Made by a program: the position numbers and the translations under genes
Assembly: GCA_018389105.1 (NCBI GenBank)
Contig: JACATO010000632.1
Location: 620,001-684,000 of the forward strand
DNA length: 64,000 nt
Source of the DNA: Nautilus pompilius
Taxonomy: Eukaryota > Mollusca > Cephalopoda > Nautilida > Nautilidae
Direction of reading: 5' to 3'
Notes under the pieces: generated by a model
The model's database searches: none
The model's input: only the letters and a program-made list of their open reading frames with translations
What the model was told of the DNA's origin: nothing
In this document: piece by piece, positions 1,167-64,000 of the stretch
Position numbering within the stretch: the first letter of the stretch is position 1
Layout of the letters: each line of letters begins with the position of its first letter

Positions 1167-30302
<29,136 letters not shown>

Positions 30303-31117
30303 TTTGAAAATTGCGCTTTTTGTTGTTGTTGTTGTTGTTCTCTCCCTTCTCCGATGGAGGAGGAGGAGGAAGAATAGCGGGGACCCCGAGTACCTCAGGG
30401 TTCCTAGTGCCGTCGATTTTATTTGTTTATTTATTTATTGTGGATAGACGCCGCTGGGGGTCGGGCAGGAAGGAGACCGACGGAGACGCGCCTGGAATAT
30501 TTTACAAAAAAAAAAACAAAACAAAAAAAATCAAACAAAAAAAAACAAAAAAACAACAAAAACAAAAAAATAAACAAAAGTAAAAAAATAAACAAAAGTA
30601 AAAAACAAACAACAACAACAACAACAGCAGGATTTTGTTGTTGTTGTTTTTTTTTTCCTCTCTCTTAACATACGTAGCCTCCCAAATCACATTTTAAACG
30701 AGATTCGTCATACCGAGGTTCCTCGGCTGGTTGACCCGCTGGATTTGACCTCGGCCGTCGGTATTCCTGCTCGCAAAACACAGAAGTCGGACGAAACTGG
30801 ATGTGCGAGGCCGTCCTCCGACGCCCCGCCCGGCCCCGGCCGCTCCGGGTGCGGAAACGCGCCAGTCGAAGTCGAAAGCGGGCGCAACCCCGGCTCGGGG
30901 CCGGGGCGATCGCTCGCGAATGCGCGGGTCTATGTCGCGCGGATGCGGAGCCTCCCGGAACGGGGGGGGGGAGTTCTTTGGGCCGACACACACACACACA
31001 CACACGGACTTCATAACGCTCGGTTGTTGTTGCATGGATTTGTTTGGATTTACGCGGACATTTCTGTTGTGGAAGCTGCCGAGGGAGTACGTGGGTGAAT
31101 GGCGGCTCTGATTCGAG
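30303..31117. promoter_or_regulatory. Putative bidirectional CCDC77-KDM5 promoter
   Basis: 815 bp separate the two start codons. The right half (about 30700-31117) is GC- and CpG-rich with no obvious TATA box, as in CpG-island promoters. A (GTT)n tract and (GGA)n lie near the CCDC77 side (30319-30372), an A-rich tract fills 30506-30610, an AAC/GTT inverted repeat spans about 30608-30650, and a (CA)n lies at 30987-31005 near KDM5. YY1-like ATGGCG motifs sit at both gene starts (30306-30296 minus; 31098-31107 plus). Transcription start sites are not visible, so the bidirectional role is inference. Confidence 0.7.
30506..30660. repeat. A-rich tract and AAC/GTT inverted repeat
   Basis: A run of A and AAAC units (30506-30605) precedes (AAC)n and then (GTT)n, which can pair around a short loop at about 30626-30632. 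Low-complexity sequence in the middle of the promoter region. Confidence 0.8.
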
Positions 31118-31134
31118 ATGGATCTTTCGGATAA
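31099..31134 (+). CDS. Upstream ORF overlapping the KDM5 start
   Basis: ATG at 31099 opens a 12-codon frame ([14 protein letters not shown] at 31132-31134) that is +1 to KDM5 and ends 14 bases after the KDM5 ATG. The overlap would force leaky scanning or limit KDM5 translation if the transcript begins upstream. Sequence is certain; a function is inference. Confidence 0.4.
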
Positions 31135-31276
31135 CCCCTACCTGTATTTCGTTCCGCCGCCCGAAGCGCCGGTCTTCACCCCGACCGAGGAGGAATTCCG
31201 CGACACCCTGGGATACATATCCAAGATCAAACCTATTGCGGAAAAAAGCGGGATATGTAAAATAAAACCGCCTCCG
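31118..31276 (+). CDS. KDM5: KDM5 exon 1 (JmjN)
   Basis: 53 codons, from ATG 31118 to donor GTTAGT. Contains [27 protein letters not shown] and [12 protein letters not shown], the core of JmjN. Confidence 0.96.
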
Positions 31277-34200
31277 GTTAGTGTCCTTCCTTCCTTCCTT
31301 TACTCGGCTTCTCTCTCCCACTTTGTCCGCTCCCTTAGGCCGGCGGGGGGCCCGGCCGGACGGGGGGGGGACGGAGACGGAGAAGGTACGTGCGAGCCGA
31401 TATCTTAAACATGGCGACGCTTTTGTTTGGCCATCATCAACCATCCCACCGCCACTCGTGCAAGGGCTTCCCTCCTCCCCCCCCCTCCTGTGGAGGTTAG
31501 GGAGGAGGTAAGGGAGTGCTCGCTGGGGCCCCAGTCGCGTGGGTGTCACGTAAGCCGTGTGGGAGAGCTGACAGACCGTACCCACCCAGGGAGGACCGAC
31601 CGACCGACCGGTCAGAGTCTACACCCAGATAGGAGAGTGCCCGCCCGCTCTGTCCCCTCGGCTCCTTTATTCGATAACGATTTCCCCACCAGCACCACTG
31701 GAATTGCGTTATGCCCGTCCCCGTTTTACCTTGAATGCTTACCAAATATATAATAACTACATCTGTTCGCTAACCGTAGGGGGAAAACCTTTCTCCAAAG
31801 GAGTTTAATTGCGTGAAGTAAAATGGTTGTGTAATCTGTAAATACCTGGGGTGGATGGATGGATGGATGCTAATATTGCTTTTCCGAATGAAGTGCGTGC
31901 GTGGGTTTTCATTCCTGCGATGATACACGACCAGGTAAGATGTTAAAAGAATGGAATTAGCATTTAACTGGGATGGTGGGGGGGGGAACTAAAGAATTCC
32001 TTCTCTACCCCCGGATCCTGATCCTTCCAGTCGTCTTGCAGCACATTAACCTTAACGGAAAAGATTGTTAGACAGTTAAAAATTTTGCGTAAAAGTCAGA
32101 GAGAGAAGTTGATTTATTATTATTTGTTGTTGTTGTTGTAAGCCAGCCTGCGCAGGGATCAGGGATGCCGGATTCCTCCTCTTGGTTGACTGTTTTTTGT
32201 TAATTATCTAATACGCTTTTTGTCATTGCAATTCCTTTGACCTTCTCGAATAATTCGTCAAGGCTCGTTAGGGTGTGATGCGGAAACTCTCGGGCTTTGC
32301 AGATAGTTGGGCCGCAGACGGAGGAACGACATTGTCAGATGATGGCCATTGCTGGACACGATCCTCCTCCTCCTCCTTAATGCTCTCCTCCTCTTGCTTT
32401 ACCTTTCAGGACTGGCAACCGCCATTCGCAGTCGATGTGGAAACTTTCAAGTTCGTGCCTCGCATCCAGAAGCTGAACGAGCTAGAGGTTAGTGAAATGT
32501 TTATGGGCTTATTTTCTCCTTTAGGTGGGTGGCTGGGAGCGAAACCCAACGGGGGGAATGCTGTCGATTTTCCCCGTGACCTCTTTATGTGAAGCCAATA
32601 TGGCTGCCGTGCAGCAGTCCTGTCCTGTCCTGTCCTGTCTCGTCTCCCACCTCCGTCGGGCTGCTGCTGCACACACGGCATTATTTCTGAAACAAACTCT
32701 CTTTGCGCTGCGTAATTATTCTAGTTTGAATTAATGCTGTGTGGGCCCGTTTCATTCCCCCTTTTTTAGCTTAATAATTGTTTTGTCTGGGGCCGGTTTG
32801 TCCGCCAACCGAATGGCGGCTTCTAGTGTGGACCAACAACTACAACTACTACTACTACTGGCGGCGGCGGTGGTGGCTCCTTCCTTCCCTCCCTCCCTCC
32901 CACTTGTAATACGCACAAAGGGACGGCTTTCCTTTCCTTTCTGGTGGTTTGCGCCTGGCATCTAGACAATAAGATGGTAGTGTAGTGTTCCGGGACGGAT
33001 CGTGTAAGGAATTTACCTAGACCTCGAGGAGGAGCTGCTGCTGTCGTCTACAGGCCGCTCGGAACATTTTGGGGTTTAATTAATTTTATCGCAGTTCTCT
33101 TTTTACGAAAAATAAAATAGTAATTATGGAAAAAATCTTTATTGAAGTAGAAGGTGTTTTCGATATTGTAAGAAAAATCTTATATATCCAGAGAATTTAA
33201 TTGTTTTAAAGTTTAATGTCCATATTGAATTCGAAAAATTCAGTTTTTCTTGTGTAACATTAAAAAATTTTTAGATCATTTCCGAGTTTAATTAGTAGGA
33301 ACTCTCTCTCTCTCTCTGCAGCTAGAAATCAAGGTGTACCTCTTAGCTTTGGTTATGATGATGATACTTTTCCTGTCGAAACCCGTCTGCATTTAAACCT
33401 TTGCCAACTGTAGCGGAGCGAAGGACTTTCTCGTGCAGCCATATAGAGCTTTAATGTTCAGGAAGATTTCTTTCCTTAATCATTTTCTATCAGAAATCGT
33501 AAATCTGAAAAGCCCTGCACATCTTGAACTGTTAAATATTTAACTGTTTATCTTAAGTTTTTGTTTTGGTTTTTTTTTTAAATGAGGGAAAAAAGGGGAC
33601 TTTGGTTTGGTGGAGTGTTTATTGTACTCTTTTTTTAGATTTACAAATATACTTCGGTTTGTAAATTGCTTTTGGTCATGTCTGCCTTTGAATGTCTTTT
33701 GTCCCATTGTTACCTGATATCTTGTGTAGATTTGATTTGTTTTGTGGTGATACTCAGGTTTATAGGCAATGCTATTGTTGGGTAAGTTGAGTTTTAAAGT
33801 CTGATCTGTTGTGGCTCTGCCCCCCCCCTCCCTTTAAAAAATATTTTTGTAAATTTGTCATTGTTGACACTTTTTTGTTGTTGGTATAAGTGTACTGTAT
33901 CATCAGGCTATGAATAATCTGGAACAAATGGCTTTTTTTTCTAATTTCAACAAATTTCTTTTTGTTTAATAGTAGTTTTACAAAAGTGCATTAGATGTTA
34001 CCTCAAGGCAGTTTGGTTTGCCAGATATAGTTCTGCTCATGTGCACCAATCATGGGGTAATTCTGTTAATCACATGGAATGCAAGTTGCAAAGTTAATTT
34101 GTCATCTTGTAGGCTTGTTTCTTGACTACAATGTTGTTGTTTTTGTGTGTGTGTGTGGGCAACCTCACCTATTCATGATACTCCTATATTAAACATTGTT

Positions 34201-37200
34201 TACATTTAACATTGACCTGTAACTCTCAAGACAAAAGTTAAAGAAAGAAAAAAAAAAGTTAGCAAATTTGCCAGTCAAATTGTGCATTGTTTTCTCAAAT
34301 CTTTAAATCTAAAGCTCTCTGACTGTTGGTGGAAATAAAGAAATATTTCTGGTCAGTATAATTCGGCTGATAAACTAGAAAGGTTGGTTATGCTTAGGTG
34401 GATAAATTTCTTCAGCACTGGTTTTTATTTGCTGTTGGACCTAGTTGTTGTTAGCTGTTTGAGATGCACGTAAGAATTTTGTAACTTTTTTTGTTAGATT
34501 TGTCATTTCTCCTGAATTGTTAACTTTGTCAAGGTGTTTGGACATTTGCAGGCTTTTGTTTTATCTTTTGCAAGTTTGCAAAACATGGAGAGTAAACGAG
34601 GTATCTTAAATATTTTGAGAGAATATTGTACACTTATTTTAATATTATTGCAATATATATTGAAATAATACTGTAATAGTATATTGCAGAATATTTGCAT
34701 TTGCAGTACTTTGGAGTAGCACTCATTTCATTTTAATATTTAAAATTTGTTTATCTTTTGCATATTATAGGCAGTCTCATCTTACTTTAGAGTTAGAAAT
34801 AACTACCTGCTACCTAAACTGTCTATATATAGTAGTAGTATCAAAGTTCGATCTTTTCATGCTCTTACTATTAGAAAAAGTGGAGAAAACTGTTTGTACA
34901 ACATGCACAGATATTAGCCACACACAAAAAAAACAATGGAAATGGACTAGCAACTGCTTCGATATGAATTTTAAAAATGTAAAAATCATTATTTTCTACT
35001 ATAAACACTATGTACAATGTACAGACACTTAAAGGTAAATGCTCATTCAAACTTTCACGGCTACCTGTTTTATTCTGGTGGCATGAATAGAGTTTAAGTT
35101 TTATGCAAGGCCGAAATCGATGACACGGAGTGGATGAGATAAGTAATCCTGGTATTTGGGATTGTGACCCATTTTTTGGCATATCCCACATGTCCAATGG
35201 GGTTCATGACTGGTGATTTAGCCAGGGCATAGCAGAATTGTGATGCCCTGGTTCTTTCATTTCTGCATTGCTTAGGTGGTGAGAGCTGTGGCACCAGTTT
35301 TTCATAAAAATACTGATTTTTGGAAGATCACCATTGGCATAGCCAAGTGGAAATCTCATGTATTAAGCAGAAGTTAATTGTTTGCTGTAACTCTCCAGTA
35401 GTCTGATCACAACATGAACTGATTGCTATAGTTTGCCATGGCAAGTCACCATACCCGCATTAGGGTGATGACTACAGAACTTATTTTTAAATATCAAAAT
35501 TCCTGCTATGACATGGGTTGAACTTTTGCATATAAAACATTAATATAAAGCTCGTTTTTGATTTGTGTGAAAAAAGTTGCCCCAGGCTGCCAAATAAAAA
35601 TTTTCATTTTACGCTCTAATAGGGCAAATTTCATAAATATTGATGTATTGGCATTCTCATACAGATTTATTTGTAACTGATACATAACTCCTATAATAAA
35701 GTTTAGTCTAATGGCTGATTATAAGTCAAGTGATACAATAGACAAAAATGCTAAAAATTTGGGCCAAACATTTGCCAAGTACAACTAAAAGACAAAGAAA
35801 TTTGCCAAGAATTGAAAGTTTCAAAGATTACGTTAGGTTACCTTTAAAAAAAAAGATGTTTTAGGATGTTACCATACACTACTTGATAATGAAAAATCAA
35901 AACAAAAAAGAGTTAAAATTATTCATGAAGAATTAATTAATCTATGGAAGAAGATGAGTTTACCCATACTCAGCGAGCAGGCAATCATTGCTCGTATTAA
36001 TAAACTAATATTAGAATATGAAAAAAATGAAAGATGTCCAAAAGAAAAATTTTAAAAAAAAATTAGATACTGTATTTGACATTACAAAGCCAGAAGGACA
36101 ATGGTTGTGTGAAGAAGACAAGAAACTTTATGAAAAACAGACCGAATCTGAAGGAAAAATAGGCTACGCAACTCATAGACAAGCTTCAATTTCCTCAATT
36201 CATCCATCAAAAAGACAGAGATGCACTCAAAAAGACAATAAAACTGAGCCGCAAGATGATATAAAAGATGACAATCAAGTAGTGCAACCACCAATTCCGA
36301 TACCAGTTCTAATGAAAGCATCTATGAATCTTCCCCTAAAGCAAAGCAAAAATTTTCTACGTTTCTGCCTACCAAATACTTACTGAACTATCACTTTCTA
36401 CTCATAAAGCATCAAACGTTTGTTTAAATCTTGCAAAAGAGGGGATAAATCTGCCAACAACTCCTCAGTCTGGAATATTCAAACACATGATTAGATGTGG
36501 GGAAGAGGAAAATAAAAAATCATCTTAGAGAAGAGAAAGATTACTGCTTGCATTTTGATGGAAAAAGGTTACCAGGAGAAAGAGGAACAGTAAAGCATGG
36601 AGAAAAGTATCAAGTTGTATGCCTTCACAGTCCCACAAAAAAAATTAAATTAGGGGTGGTCAGATGTGAAAGTGGTTCAGCCGAAAGTATATTTAAAGGA
36701 ATTGTTAGTATTCTTGACGACAACGATGCATGGTCTAGAATCAAAATGATCATTTGTGATACTACTGCTGTAAATACTGGCCATATTAATGAGGTTGTAG
36801 TTAGAATACAGCAAAAAATGTTACAAATGGGTCTAAATGTACCTCAGTACATAGGTTGCCAACACCACATTTTGGACAGAATATTAAAACATGTTCTTGA
36901 CTTCTATCTTGATAAGCATACCACAGGTCCTAATTTGAATTATAAATTTATAGATGAAATAACTGAAGGGTATGAGGTCTTAAAAGAATCGTATACGTAT
37001 ACTCCAGAGGTAGAGATGCCCGTTGTGGAAAATCCTGGATGGAGGGATGATTTCAGGTTCCTTTATATTCTATGCTTTGCATTTCGACAATATAAGGAAA
37101 ATCACAAATTACCGAAAATAATTTGGTGATCTCTACCATCAATTCATAGTGCTCGATGGAATTCCAGAGCAATTTATTCCCTTATTGCTTATTTTATGTT

Positions 37201-40200
37201 ACCAAACTGGAGAGCAGTACTTGAAAAACCAGTTACTTTCATAGCTTTTGGTTGGCAGGAAGTATGGTTTTCTAACCAAAAATCTAAGAATGAAATATAT
37301 GACAAACTCCTGTTAAATATTAAAGAAACTAAGTGCAGAACTGCTGAAAAATGCTTCAAAACTCACTGGTCCCAAGAAAATTCTGTTATTGATATACCAC
37401 GACCAAATATTATTGCTGAAAGGGGAATTAAACTAATGGAAGAATTAAGGAAAACTTGTAAAACTGATAAGTATTTAAATATAAAATTTGTTTCAAAAAA
37501 CAACTTCTAATTATTTTAATAAGTAGTATTGTACTATTTGTTACTTTTTAAAAAAGAAATAGTCTTTCTTTGATTTTTTTTTTTTTTTTAACTTTGTTTT
37601 TAAATCAAATCACACTCGTGTTTTGGAAAATTAAAAAAAAAAACACTATATTAAAAACTTTAAGTCTAACCCTGGGGGAACTTTTTTCAAAATTCAGAAG
37701 AATGATCAGCATATTCTTAATTCGTACCAAAAAGTTCGAATCCCACTGCAGGGTAATAAAATTTTTTTTTTGTCATCACCCTAACCCACATATATCCACT
37801 GCTTGAGAACAGTGAAAACCTGGACTCATTTGGAAAATTAGTGTTCCAAAAGGCAGGAGAAAGATGAGCAACATTAAGCAGAATGAAGGGTGGTTTGCAT
37901 CTTTTGCTCTTCCATTGTATTCCAATGCTATGAATATGCCTAATGGTTCTTATCTGCACATATTCTAGATTTAATTTCCATACTTCTCTTTACAGCATAG
38001 TGTTCATTTTGTTCAATTTGGTCATCCAGGACAGTTACCCAATACTTTGGAGGTTTTCCACTATCTGCCCTTTTCAAAGTTCATTAGTTCTTGCAAGCCA
38101 TTTCACAAATAGGTTATCTATCTGCAAACTAAGGCTTTCTTTTGACTATACCTGTTATAGCTTGCTATGGTAATACATTAGAATTTGAAGCTTCAAAAAA
38201 AAACTGAAATTTTATTGATTATCTATAGTTCCCTCTGTCCACTGGTACTCTTTACTTCACAAGTGTCTACTTTCAGTCAAAAACTGCTTGCTCTCAGATT
38301 TAAAATGAGCAAATTTACTTGAAACAATTTTAAACTATTTCAATTTAAAGTAAAAATGCTTTTTTGATTTTAAAGTTATACATAAATTGTAACCAGACAA
38401 GTTTTTTAAAGGTGAAAAGTCCAGGTCAGATGCATGTGACTACAGGAAATATTCAAAACAAACAAACATGGCTTACTTTTAGCCTAAATTACATTTAGTG
38501 AAATATCCATTGTTCAGGGCAGCACAGAAGCAATATTGTGGACCATTGATTCCAATTCGGATGACTGAATTAGAGTTTCTGGTATTCACATTGCAGGGTT
38601 ACCTAGTGATCAGTGGCAGTGGACAAAGTGACTAGACATGATATCAAGGATGAGGAAGTAGAACAGTGAAATTAGACTCGGTTATGAAACTAAAACCATG
38701 TGTCCATTTGTATTCTATTTATTACATGCTTTTATCTCAATGGACTGCCAATGTTGAGCTCCTGAGTTGGTTGAAATTAGCTCTGTTTGGTGTACCTCTT
38801 TGATGTGGTTTCCTCCAGCATCTTAAAAATGAAGAGTTATAGGAGGAGCTTGGCTTGTAGCCTCCTATACTGAGAAATGGTCAAGCACACAATAATCTCA
38901 TAACTGAGATTGGAATCTGAAACCTTTGAAATTAGATATTCAGAGTTAATTCCTATATTGTCATTGAAATATCCTTATGTACTGTAATTTAGTTCCTACA
39001 TTGCATCCAGTTTTCAACATATGCCCCAATAAACATGGTCATGTCTATGACAGCATCTATTTAACCTTTCAGAAAACATTTTGATATTCTGCAACCCCAT
39101 CTTTTAACCTACATGTAAATGGACACCAATTGTGCCAATGTTTGATTTCCTGTTTATCATGGGGACACACTATACAAGGACCACACAACTTATTGCATCA
39201 GTTCAACTTATATATATGCACTTCAGACAGTTGTTTGTTGTTTTAAAATTTTGTCTTAAATTCTTTTCTTTTTATTGGTTTATTACACTATTTATATCTT
39301 ATGGAAACATTGATATATTTTTCATTGTATTTGTTTACTTTCTCTGAATGGATTTGTGGTGAAATTTCATTTGTATATATATATGAATTTGTTTTTAATA
39401 AAAAAGATCTAAAAGCTTTCCTAGGTGATTTGAATATTGGGTAAAAGTGCTAACAAGATCTGTATAAAGGCAGTGCTCATTGTTTGATATCCATTGATAG
39501 TGGGCAAAGCCTGCTTTAGCAAAATTGCATGTATACATGTTTGTAGAATGTTTGCTACAGTGTGTATTTAACATTTGGTTCCAGACTGCATGATTTAACT
39601 GTATGTGATGCCAACCATTTTGTAATCCTTTAACTGGTATCAATAGTGATTTTGCAGCTTGATGTAAGATAACAATTTTTCTGAAGACGGCTGACACAAA
39701 AAATAAAAAAAGTATTTTGCCTTAAGCATCTGTATGTATATGAAATAGCTATAAGAGAGAAACAAAACAAAACCTTTATGACAAGCTGGTATTATCTTGG
39801 AATTAGTCAAATACAAGCCAGGGTGGCTTATAGTTTTTATGAATACAGTCAACTCCTAAAAATTCGAGCACCTTTGCACTAAACAGTGCTTGAATTCCTG
39901 AATTTTATGAAGTCTTGAACAGTATGGAACCTCCAGATTGAAATTTTGCATTCAAAAGAGTTTTTAAATGGTGTTTGTACTTAAAATATATAAAGAATCA
40001 TCAATAAATGGAAAGATATGCGAGTAATATTTAAAGATTTGTTGTATTGAATGTTTTGAAATAAGAGGTTAGAGGTAAGTGCTACTCGGGTATTGACAAT
40101 TTTGACTCTCCACCCTGGACAACCAAAAAAAGCTGCTGTTCATACACAATCATAAATAAAACGTGTGAATAAAAATATTTGCTGTGCTTGCTTACCAGAG

Positions 40201-46200: not shown

Positions 46201-49200
46201 TTTGTCTATCATCGTTTTGGTGGTTTGACAGGCTAATGTAACGCTGGCTGAAAAAAACTTGTTAGCCATTATGAATTATTACAGCATTTGTTTTCAAAGA
46301 TAAACCTAACTAATTTTGCCAGCATGATTTTAAAATTTGTTGACATTTTAAGTTTGCTTGCAGAGATCAACTTATTTCTCCCAAGATTAGATAGCACTTG
46401 TGGAATCTTAGGGATGAGGATATGGAGCTACTTGAATGTTGGTTTAGTATGAGTGTCAGCTGTTGCATGCAATAGCCAGGCTATGTACCTTTGGTGATAG
46501 TATAGTATACCTGTTCAGCAAAATGGTAATACAAAGTTGTTTTCCTTTTGTAATTACAAAATTTCAGAAGTTTACGTGTAAAATCCACAATGCTGTTTTG
46601 GTGTGGCATCACTATTTGGAATCTTTGTATACATTTCTCATGACATTCCAGAGTTACAGTTTGGAAGTAAGTTGTAACTGACTGACTGTTTTAAGTAAGT
46701 TTATGGGCACCAGATATTTGTAATTTGTTTTTAAATAAGGTTTCTAATTATATATGATCATCCTGTTATTTTATTAGACTAACTTAAAGACATATTTTTA
46801 CAGATTCTTACTGAAGTTTACTCTTTTCAGGCCAAAACAAGAATAAAGTTGAATTTTCTTGATCAGCTTGCCAGGTTTTGGGAATTACAGGTAGGTGCTT
46901 GCTTCTGAAATGAATTCCTCCTCTTACTGTTGGAGATGTAAAGTAGCATAAAGAATACATAGAATCTTTTAAAAGCTTGATTACTTACGTAATATCTCTT
47001 GCCATTTGTTGCTGTTTCACTGTGTATCCTACAACTTAAAGGTAACTGGGCTTATCAAATCATCAGTTTATAAAGTGATGTATTGATATTGTTTCTACTA
47101 AAATTATTAATATTTAATGCTTAAAATTATTGATTAGGCATCCAGGTTACTTAAATTTCATAGCTTACAACTATGGTTTGTTTTTCTTTTTTTTCATTTA
47201 AGTCAGAAAACTGCTAAAACTTTGATTAATACTAAAGCAGTATCAGCAAATCAGTACTCGATGGTTTAACTATATACCACTTTCCATGTTAAGAGAGGCA
47301 TAAAGTGATGCAACTTAGTTTCAAGTAACTTTAAAAACTCATTATTAATTACCATGTTTTTATGTTACATTGATTGATGTTTTTCTTGCTCTTTGTAATG
47401 TCCAAGTTGATCAAAGGTGAAGTCTAACAGATTAGGGGGAAATGCTTTCATGTTTAATAATAATAATAGTTCCTTTAATTCTTTTACTGCAACAAATTTT
47501 AATCAAACAAATCCCCTTCATTAACATCTTTCCTTTCAAAAGAAGTACAGGAAGTAGAGAATCTAATTGAGTAAATTGCAAGTAGCATGGCTACTTTAAA
47601 GAGACAATTTTTCTGGTGGAATGAGGTTTGGTTCTCTGCAGAAATTTACCAAAGGGATGCAGACATCTTGAAAATTGAAACCTGCTGGTTGTAGGTAATA
47701 ACTGTAGCTAGTATGTGCTTTGCAGTGTCCTGAGAAATGAATTCAGGACAACCAGTGCCTGCAGAACATGTGACCATTTTAACTGTTAAGATAATTGTTT
47801 TTACTGGTAAATGTAAGTTGATTGGCATTAGACCAACAGCAGTTGGTCAGTCATTTTTTTGTTGTTTTATATTTTTGATAGTTTAAAGTCATACCTGATA
47901 AACACTCAGTAACAAACTCTGGAATGGTTACCTTTAGCTGCAGGTAATTTAAAGAAACTAGGTGGGACTAGTCAGATAGCGAAATTCTATCTTATTACCC
48001 ATTAGACCATTCCTCCCCAGAATCTTTTTGCATGTTTTTGTATTATGATTCCAATCAATAAATCTAACTTTTAAATAATTTCAGCTGTTATGCAGTGTGA
48101 ATCATGTGATTAAAAACTCCAATATACATTTACAAGGGTGGAGGATTTATTAAATAAAAATTTATATTGTGGGTAAAAAAATGCTTTTGTTTTTAATGAT
48201 GAACAGAAAACTTGAACATTCATACAACCAAAAATGCTTAAGATTGTGTAATTTTAGGATGTTTGTAGCATTTAAACACACTTGCTTTTATACTGTTTAT
48301 AAACTTTGACTGTACATTAATACCCCTGTTTGTGTGAGATAGGGTTCTTGACAATTTTGTGCTAAACAGGGTTGTTAATTTAGTCAGGATAGGTTCCATA
48401 GATTAGTGAAAACTAAATTATCAATATTAATGCACCATTAATCTGAAAAAACATTACAGTAAATGAATACCACCAATAAAAGAATCACCATATTATTAGT
48501 AATTTTTATTTTAATCTTCCTGCTGTGAAGTTCCTCGCTGTGGCTCTTTGGAGGATGATGGTGTCTTGAAGGCATCAAGTATGAGCTCCTTTCACTTATG
48601 GTCGTGCAGAATATTTTCATGGCAGGCAACACCTTAGTTAACAATACTCCTGACAGCATAGATGTGCTCCCAGTTGTTGTCATACTGCTGCAAAAGATGC
48701 AACCCTGAATTTATAAGAGCTAGTTCCTCCTGAATAACTTTGGTGGTATGGATGTTTTCACCTGGAACCCTGTCAGCATCTATCTTCACACCCTGTCTGT
48801 CATGCAGCTCCATGTTGGCCAAAAGTGTGATGTCATTGGTGACTGCCAGCACATTCTCCTCAAATTCAGCAAAGTAATTAACAATGTCTAGCTGCAATTT
48901 CTACCATGCACTATTCATACAATTATACCTAACTTCCTGCCAAGACTCATTGTTGTTATTGATAGTGTTAATTATGCTATATACCGTCACCAGTCCCTCA
49001 CGTATTGTTTATCCTTCCCATCAGCGTCTTTAACCAGTTGATTAAAGGTTCAGTGTAGGTAGTAAGCCCTAAAGACAGCAATGGTACCCTGGTCCATGGG
49101 CCACAACAGGGAAGTCTTGTTGAACAGAAGAGAAACAACCTCAACTGGTAAGTCAGTTTGAAGTGTCATAGGTTTGGTGGCCTGGGGCATTTGTCCAAGG

Positions 49201-52200
49201 GTAAAATCCATGTTGCTCACAATAATTCATGATAGCCAGGCAGAAACAATGGTCAAATCAGTTGTTAAAAAACATTCTTAGTTACCCAAGCCTTAGGGTT
49301 TGACTGCCAGCTGTTCCTTTACGTCTCCCTTCATAGCTTGTAGTGTCTCGGAATGGTGCACAAGAATAGGCTTTAGCTTCAAGTCACCAGAAGTATTGCT
49401 GCCAAGGGGTGTGAGGTGGTCTTTTCATGCCTTAAAGCCAGAGGCACGCTACTCTTCGAGATGAACATGTGCAACAGCATCCTGTTCCAACTTCCCATCC
49501 ACATTAAAAACAAGGTTTGGAGGTTAATTGCCAGTCTTAAATGTTAAAGGAACTCACCTGCTGCCTTCTCATTTGTACTTAGTGATCAAACTATTCACAA
49601 CTAGCCTTCAGGTCATCAAATAAAGTTTTTGCTTTTGAAAGAATTACTGCCTTGCTCAGGGGCATGGCACATTGGTTCATATCTTCTACCCATGATAAAA
49701 ATTTCTATTTTCTCCATAACAGTGTCTTGTATGAGTTTAGCAGCAGCATCTGGAGTGGTGAACTGGCCTGCTGCTTCGATTTTGTCATCACAGTTAATTG
49801 CTGACTACAAGTATGCTCATAGTGCTAGGTGTACCGGATTATGAGCATGCTCCTAATCGGTAGTCATTGTGTTACGTCCAAATTCATGCCAAACTGGCAC
49901 ATAGTCCAGATTCCAAATGTCACAGAACTTTCAATTTAACATCAAGACTGTTGCTCTTACACTTCATTTTTTGGTTCATTCTCTGCACTGTCATTTCTAC
50001 TTGTTTGGGACCAACGTTTAGTTAAATTTGACCACATTTTATCACTTAAAACGAGTCAAATAATTGAGCAAAGTAGAACTAACCAATGTGATGATTGCCT
50101 TCCTCCAAGGGGAGTAATTCTGACTGCATTCAAGTTTAAGGGGCACATGCTCCCACCATTTACATTTTTACTGTTTTTAATAATTTGTTTTTTAAATTAC
50201 TGAAAAATGATTGTTGCATTTTTATTTCAACTTTTGAACAGTTTTTTTTTCTACATGTATTTAAAAAAACTTGTACTATAATGAATCCCCATATAACGGG
50301 GTTGCACAAAGCAGGGTATTACTGTATTCTTGTTCCAGTTGAAACTTTTGAACATTTGCATCTAGATTTTATGAAAATGCAATAAAATGTTCTATTTTTA
50401 TTATGGCTTAAACAGTTAACTTTAGAGGTTCATGATTTCTTGTAAGTTAATACAAAATTTAGAATAATATTGATTAAGTTGATAAAAAAAAAACATGGTT
50501 GACTCTAGATAGTTTTGGGGAAAATTTTAAGTTTTGAGTTTCATGGATAGCAGTTGTTGAAGTGGGTTTGTGTTGCTGGTCCTGTAACTTTGAAGTTCCT
50601 TCAGAATCCTAATGATTCTAGGAATAGTTTCTTTTCATAGTATGCATTTAAAATAGTAACTAAAAATTAGTCCATATAGTAAATATTTAACTTGAGTAAT
50701 GTGGGTTTTCTAACTTGACACAATTATTTTAAAAAAAAAAACTTAAATAATTTGTTGTTTTTCCTTTCTTAAAACACTTCTAATAATATTAACAACAAAT
50801 AGATTTTGTAGAATCTGTTTGGAATTAGTAATGGAATTGAAATTTCAATTAAAGAATATTTCATGCATGTTGTTTGATTCAGAAGTTAAGCCTTGTTGAT
50901 AAGGAATTATTTCACCAAGCAAATTTTAAAAAAAATGTATTAAGTAAAAATTGATTATAAAAACATTTTTTGAAAGAAATGGAATAAAACAAATGTTATT
51001 AGGTAAATATTAAAAAGGCCTTTTCACAGAAATTGAATAATTATTAGGTAGGTATCTTTCTTCCTGTGAACCAAGCCTCTCTGGGTTCAGGCTATATTTG
51101 ATGCCTTACTGTACTGTACAAGTTGTATGCTGAACAAGAGAATTCTGGTAATGATTCTGATAGAAAATCAGTACTGTTATGAAATTTTGTTTGTTTGCTT
51201 TTTAAATTTATTTTTTATCTATTCTTTAGTTTCTGAAATTTAATTCTACATAAACGTCACAACTTGCTTCTATATAATGTTTTTATTTTTCATCTTTTAG
51301 ACTTAATGCTCTGAAAATGTCTGCTCCAACAGTTTGTGATAATATTTTTTTTTGCATTTTAGCTTGTTATATGCGGTAAGAGTTGAGAGTAATGAATGAG
51401 AGAAAATACTTTTCGCTAATAAAACTGTTCCTAGAAGTGAAATCTCTAACCAAGGCTAAAATTAATTGGAAAAATGGCTTTGATCTGTTTCTTTCAGGGT
51501 TGTGCTTTACGTATTCCTCATGTGGAAAGAAAACTACTTGACTTGTACACCTTGTACAAGGTAATATATCTTTTATTTCATCTTTGTTTGATCACTAATA
51601 ACAATTTTATTGTGATGCTTGTTTAGTAGTGTATTTTGGTATCTCAGAAGATGTGACAATTATTCAACAAATACTTAGTGTTACCTGATTTTGGCTTAAT
51701 GGAAACTTGGATTATGCGCTGTTGGTGTGTCAAGTAAAAACAAACCAGCCAAAAATGTTAAATATGGTATAAAATATAAATGGGATTTTACTATGTGTGC
51801 ATTCTGAAAGTTGCAGTTGGGGTTAATGCAGTGTGTACTACAACCATTATTTTAGTTGAGCTAGACAAAAAAAATAATATTTGGTACATAAGTTTTTCTG
51901 TTTTTTCTACAGATGGTTGAAGATGAAGGAGGCATGGAAGTGGTATGTAAAGAAAGAAAATGGTCAAAGATAGCAATGAGAATGAATTTCCCCTCAGGGA
52001 AGGGGCTTGGTTCCATTCTGAGATCTCACTATGAAAAGCTTTTGTACCCGTTCTATCTCTTCAGAAACAATGGTGCAGAGGTAGGGTTTGTTTGTGTTTT
52101 TTTTAAAAACTTAATCTAGTTTGGGAAAAATGAGTTTCAAATGTCTAGCTTCTGATAAGCAATGTAGTAATACAGATATTTTCAGGAAGATTGGTTTAAC

Positions 52201-61600: not shown

Positions 61601-64000
61601 TATAAATGTGAAAATGCATAACCCCATTACTTTGTTTTACTTGAATGATAACTGGAATACAGCTGTTACGTCTTATAGTAAAGTTTTTTATCAAAGCTTG
61701 CAACAAAATAATCAAGAATAACGCGAAACAATAGTCAGTTGTGAAATAAAAAGTACTGCCACGCTGCTCATTTGATATATCTATCCTGTGAAATGTTTCA
61801 TCACAATATTTCCAACAAAATGTTAAAACTGGAACCCCAAACATTGAATGATTTGTCCAGGTTAGAGTTTCTTTATTTCTATTTTTGACTAAACTAAGCC
61901 AGATTCATGATTGCTTACAAGGGCATGAGTCTTCAAGTCTAGTTTGGAAAATTCTCAACTGTATGTGAATTTTACCACAGCTAAACTTGTGCTTCCAGAT
62001 GCATTTCAAAAGTCCAAGTTTCTTTTATTATAGAGTACACAGCCATGCTTTCCTCCAGTTCTTGTGGCCATTTCTTGTTCACCTCTAAGCAGAAAAGGCT
62101 TAGGAGACTGACTTTTGAGGCACTAGATCCTATGACTTCCAAATTGGGCATTGCAACTTGAAGTGGATTATTTCCCAACAAAAGTATGGAGAATCAAAGG
62201 AAAAATCAAATGAGTGGATAGAAAGAAAATAAGAAAAAAGAAGTAAAAAAATCCAAGAAAAATTGGCTGAAAAGTCTAGAATGCACCAGGTAGCTTTGAA
62301 AACGATGTGACAAGCAAGCCCCAACAACATGTGCTTCATTAAAGAGACACAAGAAATGTTGTGAAGGATCATGGATAATTCATCACTTTCTGATAAATTA
62401 GAAATGATAATTTCTGTTTTGAGTGGCTAAACCTTTTTTAAATAAAGGAATGATTATTTGCTATATAGAATGTTAATCTGAAATTAGCATTTGGTGTAAT
62501 GTTATGCCTTTAGGCCCTTGGATCATGCTATTGGTCTATGCCAACTCTTCACCCTTAGTGTTATTTTGGTCCTTCATCCTTAATTTTCATAGAGGGTACT
62601 GATGAGAAAATGTCAGAATTGTTTAAGAATTCTCACTGAAGTATAATGAAAACAATGTTACCATATCATTGGAGTTTAGGTCTTTTGGGTGATCATCATT
62701 GTCAGGATAAAGAAGGGGTTGCAAGAACTTGCATGAAAATCGTGATACTTGATAGGAAGGATTTGACTGTAAGCCTACTTTGTGAACATTACAGAAAGCA
62801 AGTGGGCTTAACCATGAGTAAAGGGCTAATACTCTTGATGATATGGTATATTAAAGAACAGAAAAAGTGATAAATTATTAATCATCATCAGAACCCTCTA
62901 CATCTATGTTAAACACAAGCATGGAATAAAGTAGCATCCTTCACTAATTAACTTCAGGTGGGTTGTCATATGCTCAAGCAGTCAATAAAACTGGAGAAGG
63001 ATGATGATGAGAAAGATGCTGACTACAAGCCGCATGGAGTGTCATCCGAAGTGGAGGGAGGATTCACTAGGAAATCGAAGCGATCAGTTCCAGAAGTAAG
63101 AGTGTGATATCACATATGCACTCACTTTCTGCTGCCTTTCTTCTCTTGTACTATTCAGTGTCAAGCTGATCTGGCTTCTTTCTACCCAACCATATGCTTT
63201 CTAGAAAAAAAAAAAACTAGTTTTTTTTTTCCCTCTGACCTTACACCACTCCTGCTTTCATTTTTTTTTTCTAGAGTGCTTTCTTGGCAGCCCTCATTAG
63301 ATAGACAGACGTGTGTCACGCCTTGAAAATTGCTTAACTTAAAAACAAATTGAAGTATTCTAAAAATGATGCACACTGGTATTATATAAATGAAGGGACC
63401 TTTTTATTTAAAATTAAAAAAAAAAATTAACATTTTTAGCATCATTTACTAACACCACAGCTTAGCACAGTTTCTAGAGAGAGTGTGTGGGAGGGAGAGT
63501 AAGCTACAGGAACGGTACTACCCTGTTTGGAAGACTGTTCATATAGTATAGCATCAGCATTTGGTTTTGAAACTGTTAAGTTGAACAATGCAATTGTGTG
63601 GTTTTTGTGAATTTTAAGGGCTGCTAAGAATTTTATTTTTAGAAATGTTTACTACTATAGCCAAGCATTAACTGAGATTTTAATTCTAATGGAATCTAGA
63701 TCAGGGCTCTGTTTTCATTGTGTGCCGGGTAATCTTTAAAACAGACCTGCCGCATGTGTGTTTTTGGCAGTAGTTTGCTTTGTTATCCATTTGACTCAGG
63801 TGACCTAGTATCAGTAATGGAATTTCAGCGTACTTTACACAAAGACTGGGAAAGTACAAGTTTGTAAAGAGGAAAATTAATTTTATTATTACTGCAGTTC
63901 TGTATAAAACCACTGAATTATTTAGTAGATTACAAAAGGTTGGGGGGGGGGGAGAGCACAGCTCCAAGCTAATGATACCACCTTGTAAGGTGGAAACCAT
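31118..64000 (+). CDS. KDM5: KDM5 (JARID1/Lid) histone H3K4 demethylase, N-terminal part
   Basis: Six exons: 31118-31276, 32410-32487, 46831-46890, 51498-51560, 51913-52080, 62958-63095, all phase 0, giving 222 aa; the gene continues past the window. Residues about 16-57 are the JmjN domain ([25 protein letters not shown], then [10 protein letters not shown]); about 82-172 are the ARID DNA-binding domain ([43 protein letters not shown]). Exon 6 has DADYKPHGV, like the DKEYKPHSI linker of KDM5B/C. The nuclear enzyme removes H3K4me2/3 using Fe(II) and 2-oxoglutarate; its JmjC, PHD and zinc-finger parts lie beyond 64000. The start is supported by an in-frame TGA at 31109-31111. Confidence 0.96.
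31277..32409 (+). other. KDM5 intron 1
   Basis: GC-rich first third, then a GATG tract at about 31851-31869 and (GTT)n at about 32128-32139. A YY1-like AACATGGCGAC lies at 31409-31419. Confidence 0.8.
32410..32487 (+). CDS. KDM5: KDM5 exon 2 (end of JmjN)
   Basis: 26 codons after acceptor [22 protein letters not shown] and RIQKLNELE match all KDM5 paralogues. Donor GTTAGT. Confidence 0.96.
35080..35340 (-). pseudogene. Tc1-like transposase C-terminal scrap
   Basis: Minus-strand frames give [20 protein letters not shown] and, one frame over, [12 protein letters not shown], both decayed forms of the Tc1 block SPDMNPIEHVWDMLKKR, then [12 protein letters not shown]. Only about 260 bp is recognisable. 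Confidence 0.45.
35770..37510 (+). pseudogene. hAT-like transposase, one family member with few lesions
   Basis: N-terminal part reads [16 protein letters not shown], then across a frameshift near 36050 [20 protein letters not shown] and [10 protein letters not shown]. After a shift near 36520 the catalytic-like core follows: HFDGKRL (36551), CDTTAVNTG (Asp at 36758), [10 protein letters not shown] (36857, the CxxH position) and, after a single in-frame TGA (37127-37129), [10 protein letters not shown] (RW motif) and a C-terminal [12 protein letters not shown]. The D, CxxH, RW, E order resembles hAT RNase H-like transposases (inference). Similar uncharacterised proteins are repeated in invertebrate genomes (recalled). 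No BED finger or inverted ends were seen. Confidence 0.65.
42770..43050 (-). repeat. tRNA-like SINE candidate
   Basis: On the minus strand TGGTAGTACAATAGTTATGC (A-box-like, around 43040-43018) is followed by CTGGACAGCTGAGGTCAAG and AGCTCAAGTTCAGA (weak B-box) near 42993-42980. The wording is that of a tRNA head with an unrelated body to about 42770. No poly(A) tail found. Confidence 0.4.
44219..44353. mobile_element. Short inverted-repeat element (MITE), 135 bp
   Basis: Ends CAGGCATACTTCTTATAGCA and, on the other strand, CAGGAATACCTCATAGTGCT, flanked by TA (44217-44218; 44354-44355). Too short to code; likely moved by a Tc1/mariner/pogo-type transposase. Confidence 0.72.
44658..44700. repeat. 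Near-perfect 43-bp palindrome
   Basis: TGATTCTGATCTATATATAT pairs with its complement around an AT centre, preceded by (CTAT)n. Confidence 0.9.
45201..45752. mobile_element. Tigger-type non-autonomous element, 552 bp
   Basis: Ends CAGTTGTCCCCTGGTATTTG (left) and TAGTCGACCCCTGCGTAGTC (minus strand, right) with TA on both sides (45199-45200; 45753-45754). GC-rich ends with CCGCGAATAT-like internal repeats, AT-rich middle, no coding frame. Resembles the CAGT.G.CCCC ends of Tigger elements. Confidence 0.75.
46831..46890 (+). CDS. KDM5: KDM5 exon 3 (ARID start)
   Basis: A 60-nt exon encoding [20 protein letters not shown] between TTTTCAG and GTAGGT; first helix of ARID. Human KDM5A has [20 protein letters not shown] here. 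Confidence 0.96.
48315..50324 (-). mobile_element. Tigger/pogo element, full length, degenerate
   Basis: About 2.0 kb. Ends: CATTAATACCCCTGTTTGTG at left and CAGTAATACCCTGCTTTGTG on the minus strand at right, each with TA outside (48313-48314; 50325-50326). Transposase remains on the minus strand: [12 protein letters not shown] with [15 protein letters not shown] (about 49150-49046), then an acidic C-terminal region (48900-48640). Broken by stops. Confidence 0.85.
48640..50000 (-). pseudogene. Tigger/pogo transposase pseudogene
   Basis: The block around the second catalytic Asp ([15 protein letters not shown], about 49100-49050) is clear and followed by [15 protein letters not shown]-terminal remnants include [14 protein letters not shown] and [10 protein letters not shown]. 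The N-terminal CENP-B-like part is eroded. A second lineage from the copy at 20.5-22.5 kb. Confidence 0.75.
51498..51560 (+). CDS. KDM5: KDM5 exon 4 (ARID)
   Basis: 63 nt encoding [17 protein letters not shown] then TLYK; acceptor TTTCAG, donor GTAATA. Confidence 0.96.
51561..51912 (+). other. KDM5 intron 4
   Basis: 352 bp, no feature beyond splice signals. Confidence 0.85.
51913..52080 (+). CDS. KDM5: KDM5 exon 5 (ARID, C-terminal helices)
   Basis: 56 codons after acceptor [46 protein letters not shown] and [11 protein letters not shown]; donor GTAGGG. The second residue of the usual GGFE is Met here (GGME), a small departure from the family. Confidence 0.96.
53649..54098. mobile_element. 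Tigger-type non-autonomous element, 450 bp
   Basis: Ends CAGTAAAATGCAACCAATAG (left) and CAGTAAAGTGCGACCATTAA (minus strand, right) with TA flanks (53647-53648; 54099-54100). The internal motif CCAATAGTC.(A/G)CTTG..TTGGG recurs near both ends, so the ends carry longer subterminal inversions. No coding frame. Confidence 0.82.
54224..54265. repeat. Hairpin-forming inverted repeat
   Basis: AATGTTGGGTTTTTTT faces AAAAAACCCAACATT across a short A/C loop. Confidence 0.85.
55197..56243 (+). mobile_element. Tc1-like element with both inverted ends, degenerate
   Basis: 1047 bp flanked by TA (55195-55196; 56244-56245). Ends CACTGGCTGGCCCCTTTATT and, on the minus strand, CAGTGGCTGGCTATTTTATT. On the plus strand decayed Tc1 blocks remain: CAAGATGACAC at 55941 reads [11 protein letters not shown] (from QDNA.PHTA) followed by VCSWFEE, and about 100 bp on DLDPLWYLG (from DLNPIEN.W). 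Many stops. Short for Tc1, perhaps internally deleted. Confidence 0.8.
57800..58520 (+). pseudogene. Tc1-like transposase remnant (C-terminal half)
   Basis: Plus strand: [13 protein letters not shown] (from SRF....R..V.R..GE) at about 58025, [20 protein letters not shown] and [15 protein letters not shown] (58105-58220), then in another frame [20 protein letters not shown] and [12 protein letters not shown]...LP to the stop at 58516-58518. The QDNARPH block between them is scrambled. A Tc1 lineage distinct from the 55-kb element. Ends not found. Confidence 0.75.
58628..58666. repeat. (TA)n microsatellite
   Basis: About 19 TA units just after the Tc1 relic. Confidence 0.95.
62958..63095 (+). 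CDS. KDM5: KDM5 exon 6 (linker between ARID and PHD1)
   Basis: 46 codons, acceptor CTTCAG and donor GTAAGA, phase 0 on both sides. Acidic stretch [18 protein letters not shown] followed by basic [11 protein letters not shown]. The YKPH motif and the basic patch occur in the same linker of KDM5B/C. Confidence 0.9.
63096..64000 (+). other. KDM5 intron 6 (partial)
   Basis: Begins with donor GTAAGA and continues to the window edge. Contains poly(A/T) tracts and a G9-10 run near 63942; no further exon seen. Confidence 0.7.

What the first reader, a model, noticed from the sequence alone, without database searches (positions are those of the whole stretch)
30280..31276. Ancient head-to-head CCDC77-KDM5 gene pair
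A chromatin demethylase and a centrosomal coiled-coil protein are divergently transcribed with start codons 815 bp apart. From memory, human KDM5A and CCDC77 are arranged the same way, so the pair may have survived since early bilaterians, a candidate for selection on a shared promoter linking H3K4 demethylation to a ciliary/centrosome gene.
Basis: partly seen in the sequence, partly recalled or inferred. Interest (0 to 1): 0.85.

Follow-up and report, generated by a model that had tools for sequence, protein, structure and literature searches.

The report
Ancient divergent KDM5–CCDC77 gene pair
In what is very probably a mollusc genome, a histone-demethylase gene and a centriole-structure gene start back to back from one CpG-rich promoter region, apparently as in humans, so the pairing is probably over half a billion years old, although ancient pairs of this sort are a known class and no functional link between the two genes was shown.

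Summary
KDM5 starts at 31118 (+) and CCDC77 at 30302 (−), exactly 815 bases apart. CCDC77 is a complete 10-exon, 588-residue gene; its name rests on a recalled human sequence. KDM5 runs on beyond the window with PHD, JmjC, C-hel and C5HC2 parts. Each appears single-copy in this genome, which is probably a mollusc, perhaps Nautilus pompilius. The interval holds by far the strongest CpG island in 144 kb. Combined strand composition of the non-coding DNA switches sign at 30263, as expected from long divergent germline transcription. Human KDM5A and CCDC77 are listed as neighbours and the KDM5A 5′ end faces CCDC77; CCDC77's own strand there is recalled. Best reading: an inherited bilaterian head-to-head pair sharing one promoter domain, probably with two core promoters inside it. 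One study counts 372 putatively ancestral bidirectional promoters in chordates, so this is a new member of a known kind. The proposed tie between H3K4 demethylation and a ciliary gene has no support here. Other invertebrates and start sites could not be tested.

The parts
30303..31117 (.). 815-base interval between the two start codons: proposed shared CpG-rich divergent promoter domain
   Evidence: distance; the twelve CpG-richest of 1,368 windows lie within C608:650001-651900, i.e. window about 30001-31900; combined skew switch at 30263, just inside CCDC77 intron 1
30280..30302 (-). CCDC77 exon 1 (MASSDVR..), GTAAGT donor
26338..26732 (-). CCDC77 exon 2
25966..26087 (-). CCDC77 exon 3
12169..12306 (-). 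CCDC77 exon 4
7735..7906 (-). CCDC77 exon 5
6902..7142 (-). CCDC77 exon 6
5547..5772 (-). CCDC77 exon 7
4650..4775 (-). CCDC77 exon 8
2720..2872 (-). CCDC77 exon 9
1167..1337 (-). CCDC77 exon 10 with stop codon
31118..31276 (+). KDM5 exon 1, JmjN domain
32410..32487 (+). KDM5 exon 2
46831..46890 (+). KDM5 exon 3 ([20 protein letters not shown]), start of ARID
   Evidence: ends set by eye from the printed sequence
51498..51560 (+). KDM5 exon 4, ARID
   Evidence: ends set by eye
51913..52080 (+). KDM5 exon 5, ARID C-terminal half
   Evidence: ends set by eye
62958..63094 (+). probable further KDM5 exon ([17 protein letters not shown]...), assigned by eye against recalled KDM5 sequence; end approximate
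   Evidence: sequence printed; no homology search done
30295..30305 (-). YY1-like AAAATGGCGTC overlapping the CCDC77 start codon (partly forced by Met-Ala)
31098..31106 (+). YY1-like AATGGCGGC 20 bases upstream of the KDM5 ATG
30505..30618 (.). A-rich imperfect simple repeat that splits the interval

Best explanation
This is an inherited head-to-head gene pair. KDM5 (H3K4 demethylase) and CCDC77 (centriole A-C linker protein) are transcribed in opposite directions out of one CpG-island promoter domain about 2 kb wide, within which each gene probably has its own core promoter close to its own ATG. Shown: the two gene models, their orientation and spacing, apparent single copy number, one dominant island, and the combined strand-asymmetry switch. 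Inferred: that the island is unmethylated and drives both genes; that the arrangement descends from the bilaterian ancestor and is the one kept by human KDM5A and CCDC77; and that it persisted because a break or insertion would cut one gene off from the island that both need (ordinary cis-regulatory constraint on broadly expressed genes), not because the two products work together.
For: 815-base divergent spacing. Gene models. KDM5 apparently single-copy: 5 of 6 matches on C608, the sixth a 42-residue JmjN-like match at 52%. CCDC77 apparently single-copy: 9 of 9 matches are exons 2-10 on C608. Strongest CpG island of 144 kb: up to 82 CpG per 800 bases, median 6, at most 35 outside C608:648.5-654.5k, 1,368 windows. 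Cumulative (G+T)-(A+C) with exons and homopolymers masked has its minimum at 30263; 0 of 10,000 block shuffles reach the observed range. Fourteen hemocyanin beta-sandwich domains in this genome. Human listing KDM5A, CCDC77; human KDM5A exons 6-9 at chr12:460,661-470,642 and exons 1-10 within 458,096-507,789, so its 5' end is on the high-coordinate side, where CCDC77 is listed. Cattle listing the same. Two other families of human 12p13.33 lie on other contigs here (RAD52 family on C2112; CHGN family, to which B4GALNT3 is recalled to belong, on C358, C300, C65, C867 and C1354), so no wider block was seen.
Against: The island has two GC-rich parts with a GC dip and A-rich tract between, and each gene has its own YY1-like site, which fits two neighbouring promoters as well as one. 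The G-C skew taken alone turns at 27199, 3 kb inside CCDC77 intron 1, not at the interval, and the negative combined skew does not end with CCDC77 but continues at 610-620k. No expression or start-site data. Human CCDC77 strand and the CCDC77 reference sequence are recalled. No other invertebrate could be examined: three collection scans confirmed no relative. Only two neighbour families were tested for a wider block, on a 958 kb contig.
Confidence: 0.65

Rival explanations
1. Passive survival: the pair is ancestral, but has simply not been broken in a slowly rearranging genome; the two promoters are independent and adjacent.
For: Two GC-rich parts separated by an A-rich tract; separate YY1-like sites near each ATG.
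Against: Two human 12p13.33 neighbour families are not on this contig, so linkage around the pair seems to have turned over while the pair stayed; one CpG-rich stretch spans both starts.
Confidence: 0.25
2. Selected functional coupling: co-regulation of KDM5 and CCDC77, or feedback of KDM5 on its own H3K4me3-marked promoter, ties centriole integrity to chromatin state.
For: Physical sharing of the promoter region. CCDC77 is in an S/G2-M gene list and its knockdown inhibited proliferation (PMC6788831, passages).
Against: No co-expression or binding data here. A paper search for KDM5 with cilia, centriole and H3K4 listed five papers, none on this subject by title. Divergent pairs are common: 25% of neighbouring genes in amphioxus.
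Confidence: 0.06
3. Coincidence: the two genes came together independently in this animal and in vertebrates.
For: Nothing beyond the lack of intermediate species.
Against: Chance of this precise divergent neighbour is about 2e-5 per genome (my estimate, no call).
Confidence: 0.02

Closest known systems
Ancestral bidirectional promoters of chordates (amphioxus genome paper, PMC6292497; passages read)
   Same: Two protein-coding genes 5' to 5'; the paper counts 372 putatively ancestral cases and examines YY1 motifs on ubiquitous promoters.
   Different: Those were defined by CAGE or 5'-to-5' microsynteny in chordates; here there are no start-site data and the animal is probably a mollusc. Whether KDM5-CCDC77 is among the 372 was not seen.
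Ancient metazoan microsynteny (Irimia et al. 2012; not held; title seen in reference lists, content recalled)
   Same: Neighbouring gene pairs kept across animal phyla, attributed to cis-regulatory constraint.
   Different: Its pair list could not be read, so this pair may already be in it.
Human KDM5A-CCDC77 at 12p13.33
   Same: Listed as neighbours, KDM5A 5' end toward CCDC77.
   Different: One of several vertebrate KDM5 paralogues there (A, B, C and D are named among the PDB matches); a single KDM5 here. Exact human spacing and CCDC77 strand are recalled, not tested.

Membership tests
KDM5/JARID1 demethylases | JmjN + ARID + PHD + JmjC + C5HC2 zinc finger in order, closer to KDM5 than to JARID2 or KDM4 | tested here: met
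   JmjN and ARID; PHD1-type sequence near C608:706.7k read by eye only; JmjC, KDM5_C-hel and zf-C5HC2 on the same strand
CCDC77 (centriole A-C linker protein) | full-length sequence similarity to a CCDC77 reference | tested here: inconclusive
Head-to-head (divergent) gene pair under 1 kb | opposite strands, 5' ends facing, TSS distance under 1 kb | tested here: inconclusive
   orientation met and ATG-ATG distance is 815 bases, so start sites within the interval would be under 1 kb apart; start sites not mapped and upstream non-coding exons not excluded
Bidirectional (shared) promoter | one open, CpG-rich, unmethylated region driving both genes | tested here: inconclusive
   a single dominant CpG island and a combined skew switch support it; two GC-rich parts and no functional or methylation data leave it open
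Ancient bilaterian microsyntenic pair | same adjacency and orientation in protostome and deuterostome genomes | tested here: inconclusive
   arrangement shown here in a probable mollusc; human adjacency and KDM5A direction from papers; human CCDC77 direction recalled
Ancient bilaterian microsyntenic pair | retention in further invertebrate phyla | not testable with these tools
   no other animal genomes are offered; scans of genome contigs and viral contigs confirmed no relative

The most novel reading that the evidence does not exclude
The pair has stayed together since before the protostome-deuterostome split because KDM5 protein sets H3K4me3 on its own promoter, so the centriole A-C linker gene CCDC77 is bound to the KDM5 feedback loop. 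Centriole-wall integrity and KDM5 dosage would then be coupled in all animals that keep the pair, and human deletions of the KDM5A 5' end would be double lesions.
Probability: 0.05. Interest if true: 0.7.

Novelty: new member of a known kind. Interest (0 to 1): 0.38.

Why it matters
If the pair is as old as it looks, it is a small, testable example of promoter sharing resisting rearrangement for more than half a billion years. It also gives a caution for human genetics: loss of the KDM5A 5' region may remove CCDC77 expression as well. The homozygous 50 kb deletion chr12:458,096-507,789 in PMC7755391 should, by recalled hg19 coordinates, take the CCDC77 5' end, and the word CCDC77 does not occur in that paper's main text.

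Tried and rejected
Looked for other animal loci in genome contigs (CCDC77) and viral contigs (CCDC77 exons 4-5; KDM5 exon 1): 11, 2 and 8 pattern matches respectively, none confirmed as a relative. Looked for a database reference for CCDC77 in Pfam (none) and the PDB: the S13 matches (best E=0.0012) were rejected as chance matches of a charge-rich protein. Looked for a larger conserved block: the RAD52 family and the CHGN family lie on other contigs; SLC6 (PF00209), the WNK-type family (PF12202) and the ERC1-type family (PF10174) were asked for and never answered. Motif scan of 30250-31180 against 500 first-order random sequences: NRF1, ETS, NFY, E2F, CREB, X-box, TATA, Ronin and ZBTB33 patterns absent; GGGCGG 2 found, 1.03 expected; CHR 1 found, 1.56 expected; only YY1-like patterns clearly exceed expectation. 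The same YY1-like patterns also occur at 31408 and 32812 (+), so they are not confined to the interval. Pfam scans covered 31001-61001 on the plus strand and 1-30500 on the minus strand, save a gap of about 500 bases near 10.0-10.5 kb; the opposite strands and 61-64 kb were not scanned, so further genes there are not excluded. No Rfam family at gathering score and no tRNA in the window. Human CCDC77 strand: PMC12251285 (passages) gives only an intron position and did not settle it. Paper searches on YY1 at bidirectional promoters and on conserved bidirectional pairs gave nothing used. In one search my mask for KDM5 exon 3 was about 70 bases off (46900-46970 instead of 46831-46890), too little to matter in a 64 kb sum.

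Full report
What is there. The window is bases 620001-684000 of contig C608 (957,877 bases) in a 727.6 Mb assembly of 2,558 contigs. KDM5 begins on the plus strand with an ATG at 31118, and CCDC77 begins on the minus strand with an ATG at 30302; 815 bases lie between.

KDM5. Exon 1 carries a JmjN domain (Pfam E=1e-15) and a later exon an ARID (E=1.3e-8). The first five exons spliced give 176 residues whose best PDB match is KDM5A over 162 residues, E=1.1e-71, followed by lid and JARID1C, D and B; JARID2 (4.5e-17) and KDM4A (about 1e-4) are far weaker. Beyond the window the gene continues on the same strand, with a PHD1-type exon near C608:706.7k (read by eye), JmjC exons at 713.6-716.9k, and the KDM5 C-terminal helical and C5HC2 domains. 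In the whole assembly the KDM5 start has six matches, five on C608 and one short JmjN-like match on C149, so KDM5 appears single-copy.

CCDC77. Ten exons on the minus strand, 30302 down to 1167, with nine GT-AG introns, give an uninterrupted 588-residue protein. All nine matches in the assembly are exons 2-10 on C608. In print CCDC77 is a component of the centriole A-C linker with WDR67 and MIIP (PMC12704290, passages) and sits in a list of S/G2-M genes, its knockdown inhibiting proliferation (PMC6788831, passages).

The organism. Fourteen hemocyanin beta-sandwich domains (PF14830, typical of molluscs, recalled) were found, seven on each of two contigs. This makes the genome probably that of a mollusc. 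Seven units per gene (recalled for Nautilus) and a size of 727.6 Mb fit Nautilus pompilius, published at 730.58 Mb with contig N50 1.1 Mb (PMC8257504, passages). The species is inference.

The interval. CpG observed/expected is 0.35 over the window and 0.81-1.46 in the 400-base windows from 29801 to 31400. Among 1,368 windows of 800 bases over C608:590001-734000, the twelve richest in CpG all lie within 650001-651900 (up to 82 CpG; median 6). Outside 648.5-654.5k the best five have 33-35 CpG with GC below 0.47, near 594.4k and 689.2k, next to or within transposon-like open frames. Inside the interval the GC content dips around an A-rich tract at 30505-30618. YY1-like sites lie at each gene's start in its sense direction: AAAATGGCGTC at the CCDC77 ATG and AATGGCGGC 20 bases before the KDM5 ATG (0.05-0.06 expected per pattern). 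The first is partly forced by a Met-Ala start, and like patterns also occur at 31408 and 32812. Together this suggests one island with two cores.

A fossil of transcription. With homopolymers, coding exons and the A-rich tract masked, the cumulative (G+T)-(A+C) of the plus strand falls overall through CCDC77 and rises overall through KDM5, with its minimum at 30263; 0 of 10,000 shuffles of 1 kb blocks reach the observed range. The A-T sum alone turns at 30274, but the G-C sum alone turns at 27199, inside CCDC77 intron 1. The positive bias continues through 684-734k, along KDM5 (34.5 to 77.1 per kb); on the other side it is -37.1 at 610-620k, +4.2 at 600-610k and -14.1 at 590-600k, so it does not stop sharply at the CCDC77 stop codon. 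A sense-strand excess of G and T in germline-transcribed genes is established knowledge (recalled), and the pattern supports long-lasting divergent transcription from about this spot. Blocks are not independent, so the shuffle count is only indicative.

Age. A human gene listing runs SLC6A13, KDM5A, CCDC77, B4GALNT3 (PMC8303811, passages). KDM5A exons 6-9 lie at chr12:460,661-470,642 and exons 1-10 within 458,096-507,789 (PMC7755391, passages), so its 5' end points to the high-coordinate side, toward CCDC77. A cattle listing has the same order (PMC9247466, passage). Chicken has both in one unordered list for an island of homozygosity (PMC7718761, passage). I recall human CCDC77 on the plus strand, its start overlapping that of KDM5A; this is not from a call. 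If this holds, a mollusc and a mammal share the divergent pair and the bilaterian ancestor had it, since coincidence is of the order of 2e-5 (my estimate). RAD52 and CHGN family members, looked for because relatives lie in the same human region, are on other contigs, so no wider block was seen; this is limited to two families and one contig.

Mechanism. The simplest account is a shared CpG-island promoter domain whose disruption would hurt at least one broadly expressed gene, so breakage is removed by selection (inference). Amphioxus data show how ordinary this is: 25% (3,950 of 15,884) of neighbouring genes are arranged in bidirectional promoters, these are enriched for housekeeping functions, and of 372 putatively ancestral ones 54.5% were lost in stem vertebrates (PMC6292497, passages). 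A link from H3K4 demethylation to cilia is not needed and nothing here shows it.

Prior knowledge. Six held papers contain both KDM5A and CCDC77; I read passages of three and saw the other three only in the listing; none is about a shared promoter by title. KDM5A with 'bidirectional promoter' lists two papers, neither about this locus by title. CCDC77 alone occurs in 61 held papers, of which 40 were listed. The main catalogue of ancient pairs is not held, so I do not claim that the pair is unreported.

Verdict. It is a good example of a known class.

Noticed in passing
window 31099-31134 (+): A short upstream reading frame (11 codons, starting inside the YY1-like AATGGCGGC) overlaps the KDM5 start codon in another frame; if transcribed it could dampen KDM5 translation. 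Read by eye.
   Followed up: partly
window 30320-30339 and 30505-30626: TTG/AAC and A-rich simple repeats lie in the interval; read along CCDC77, a (CAA)n run sits just upstream of its start codon.
   Followed up: partly
window 21047-21268 (-): Remnant of a DDE_1-type (Tc5/pogo-like) transposase (E=8.7e-14) inside CCDC77 intron 3.
   Followed up: no
window 35837-37507 (+): Cluster of long open frames of unknown nature in KDM5 intron 2; four of them had no Pfam match.
   Followed up: partly
L012 4744-5985 (-): 414-residue open frame with a hAT dimerisation domain (E=3e-9) within the span of KDM5 beyond the window.
   Followed up: no
C557:780470-791999 and C1362:511129-522124: Two hemocyanin-like loci with seven beta-sandwich domains each, the basis for calling the genome a mollusc and perhaps Nautilus.
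   Followed up: partly
C608:610001-620000: The strand skew of CCDC77 continues at equal strength (-37.1 per kb) for 10 kb beyond its stop codon: a long 3' end, read-through, or another minus-strand gene.
   Followed up: no
human chr12:458,096-507,789 (PMC7755391): A reported homozygous deletion of KDM5A exons 1-10 probably also removes the CCDC77 5' end (recalled coordinates); CCDC77 does not occur in the paper's main text.
   Followed up: partly
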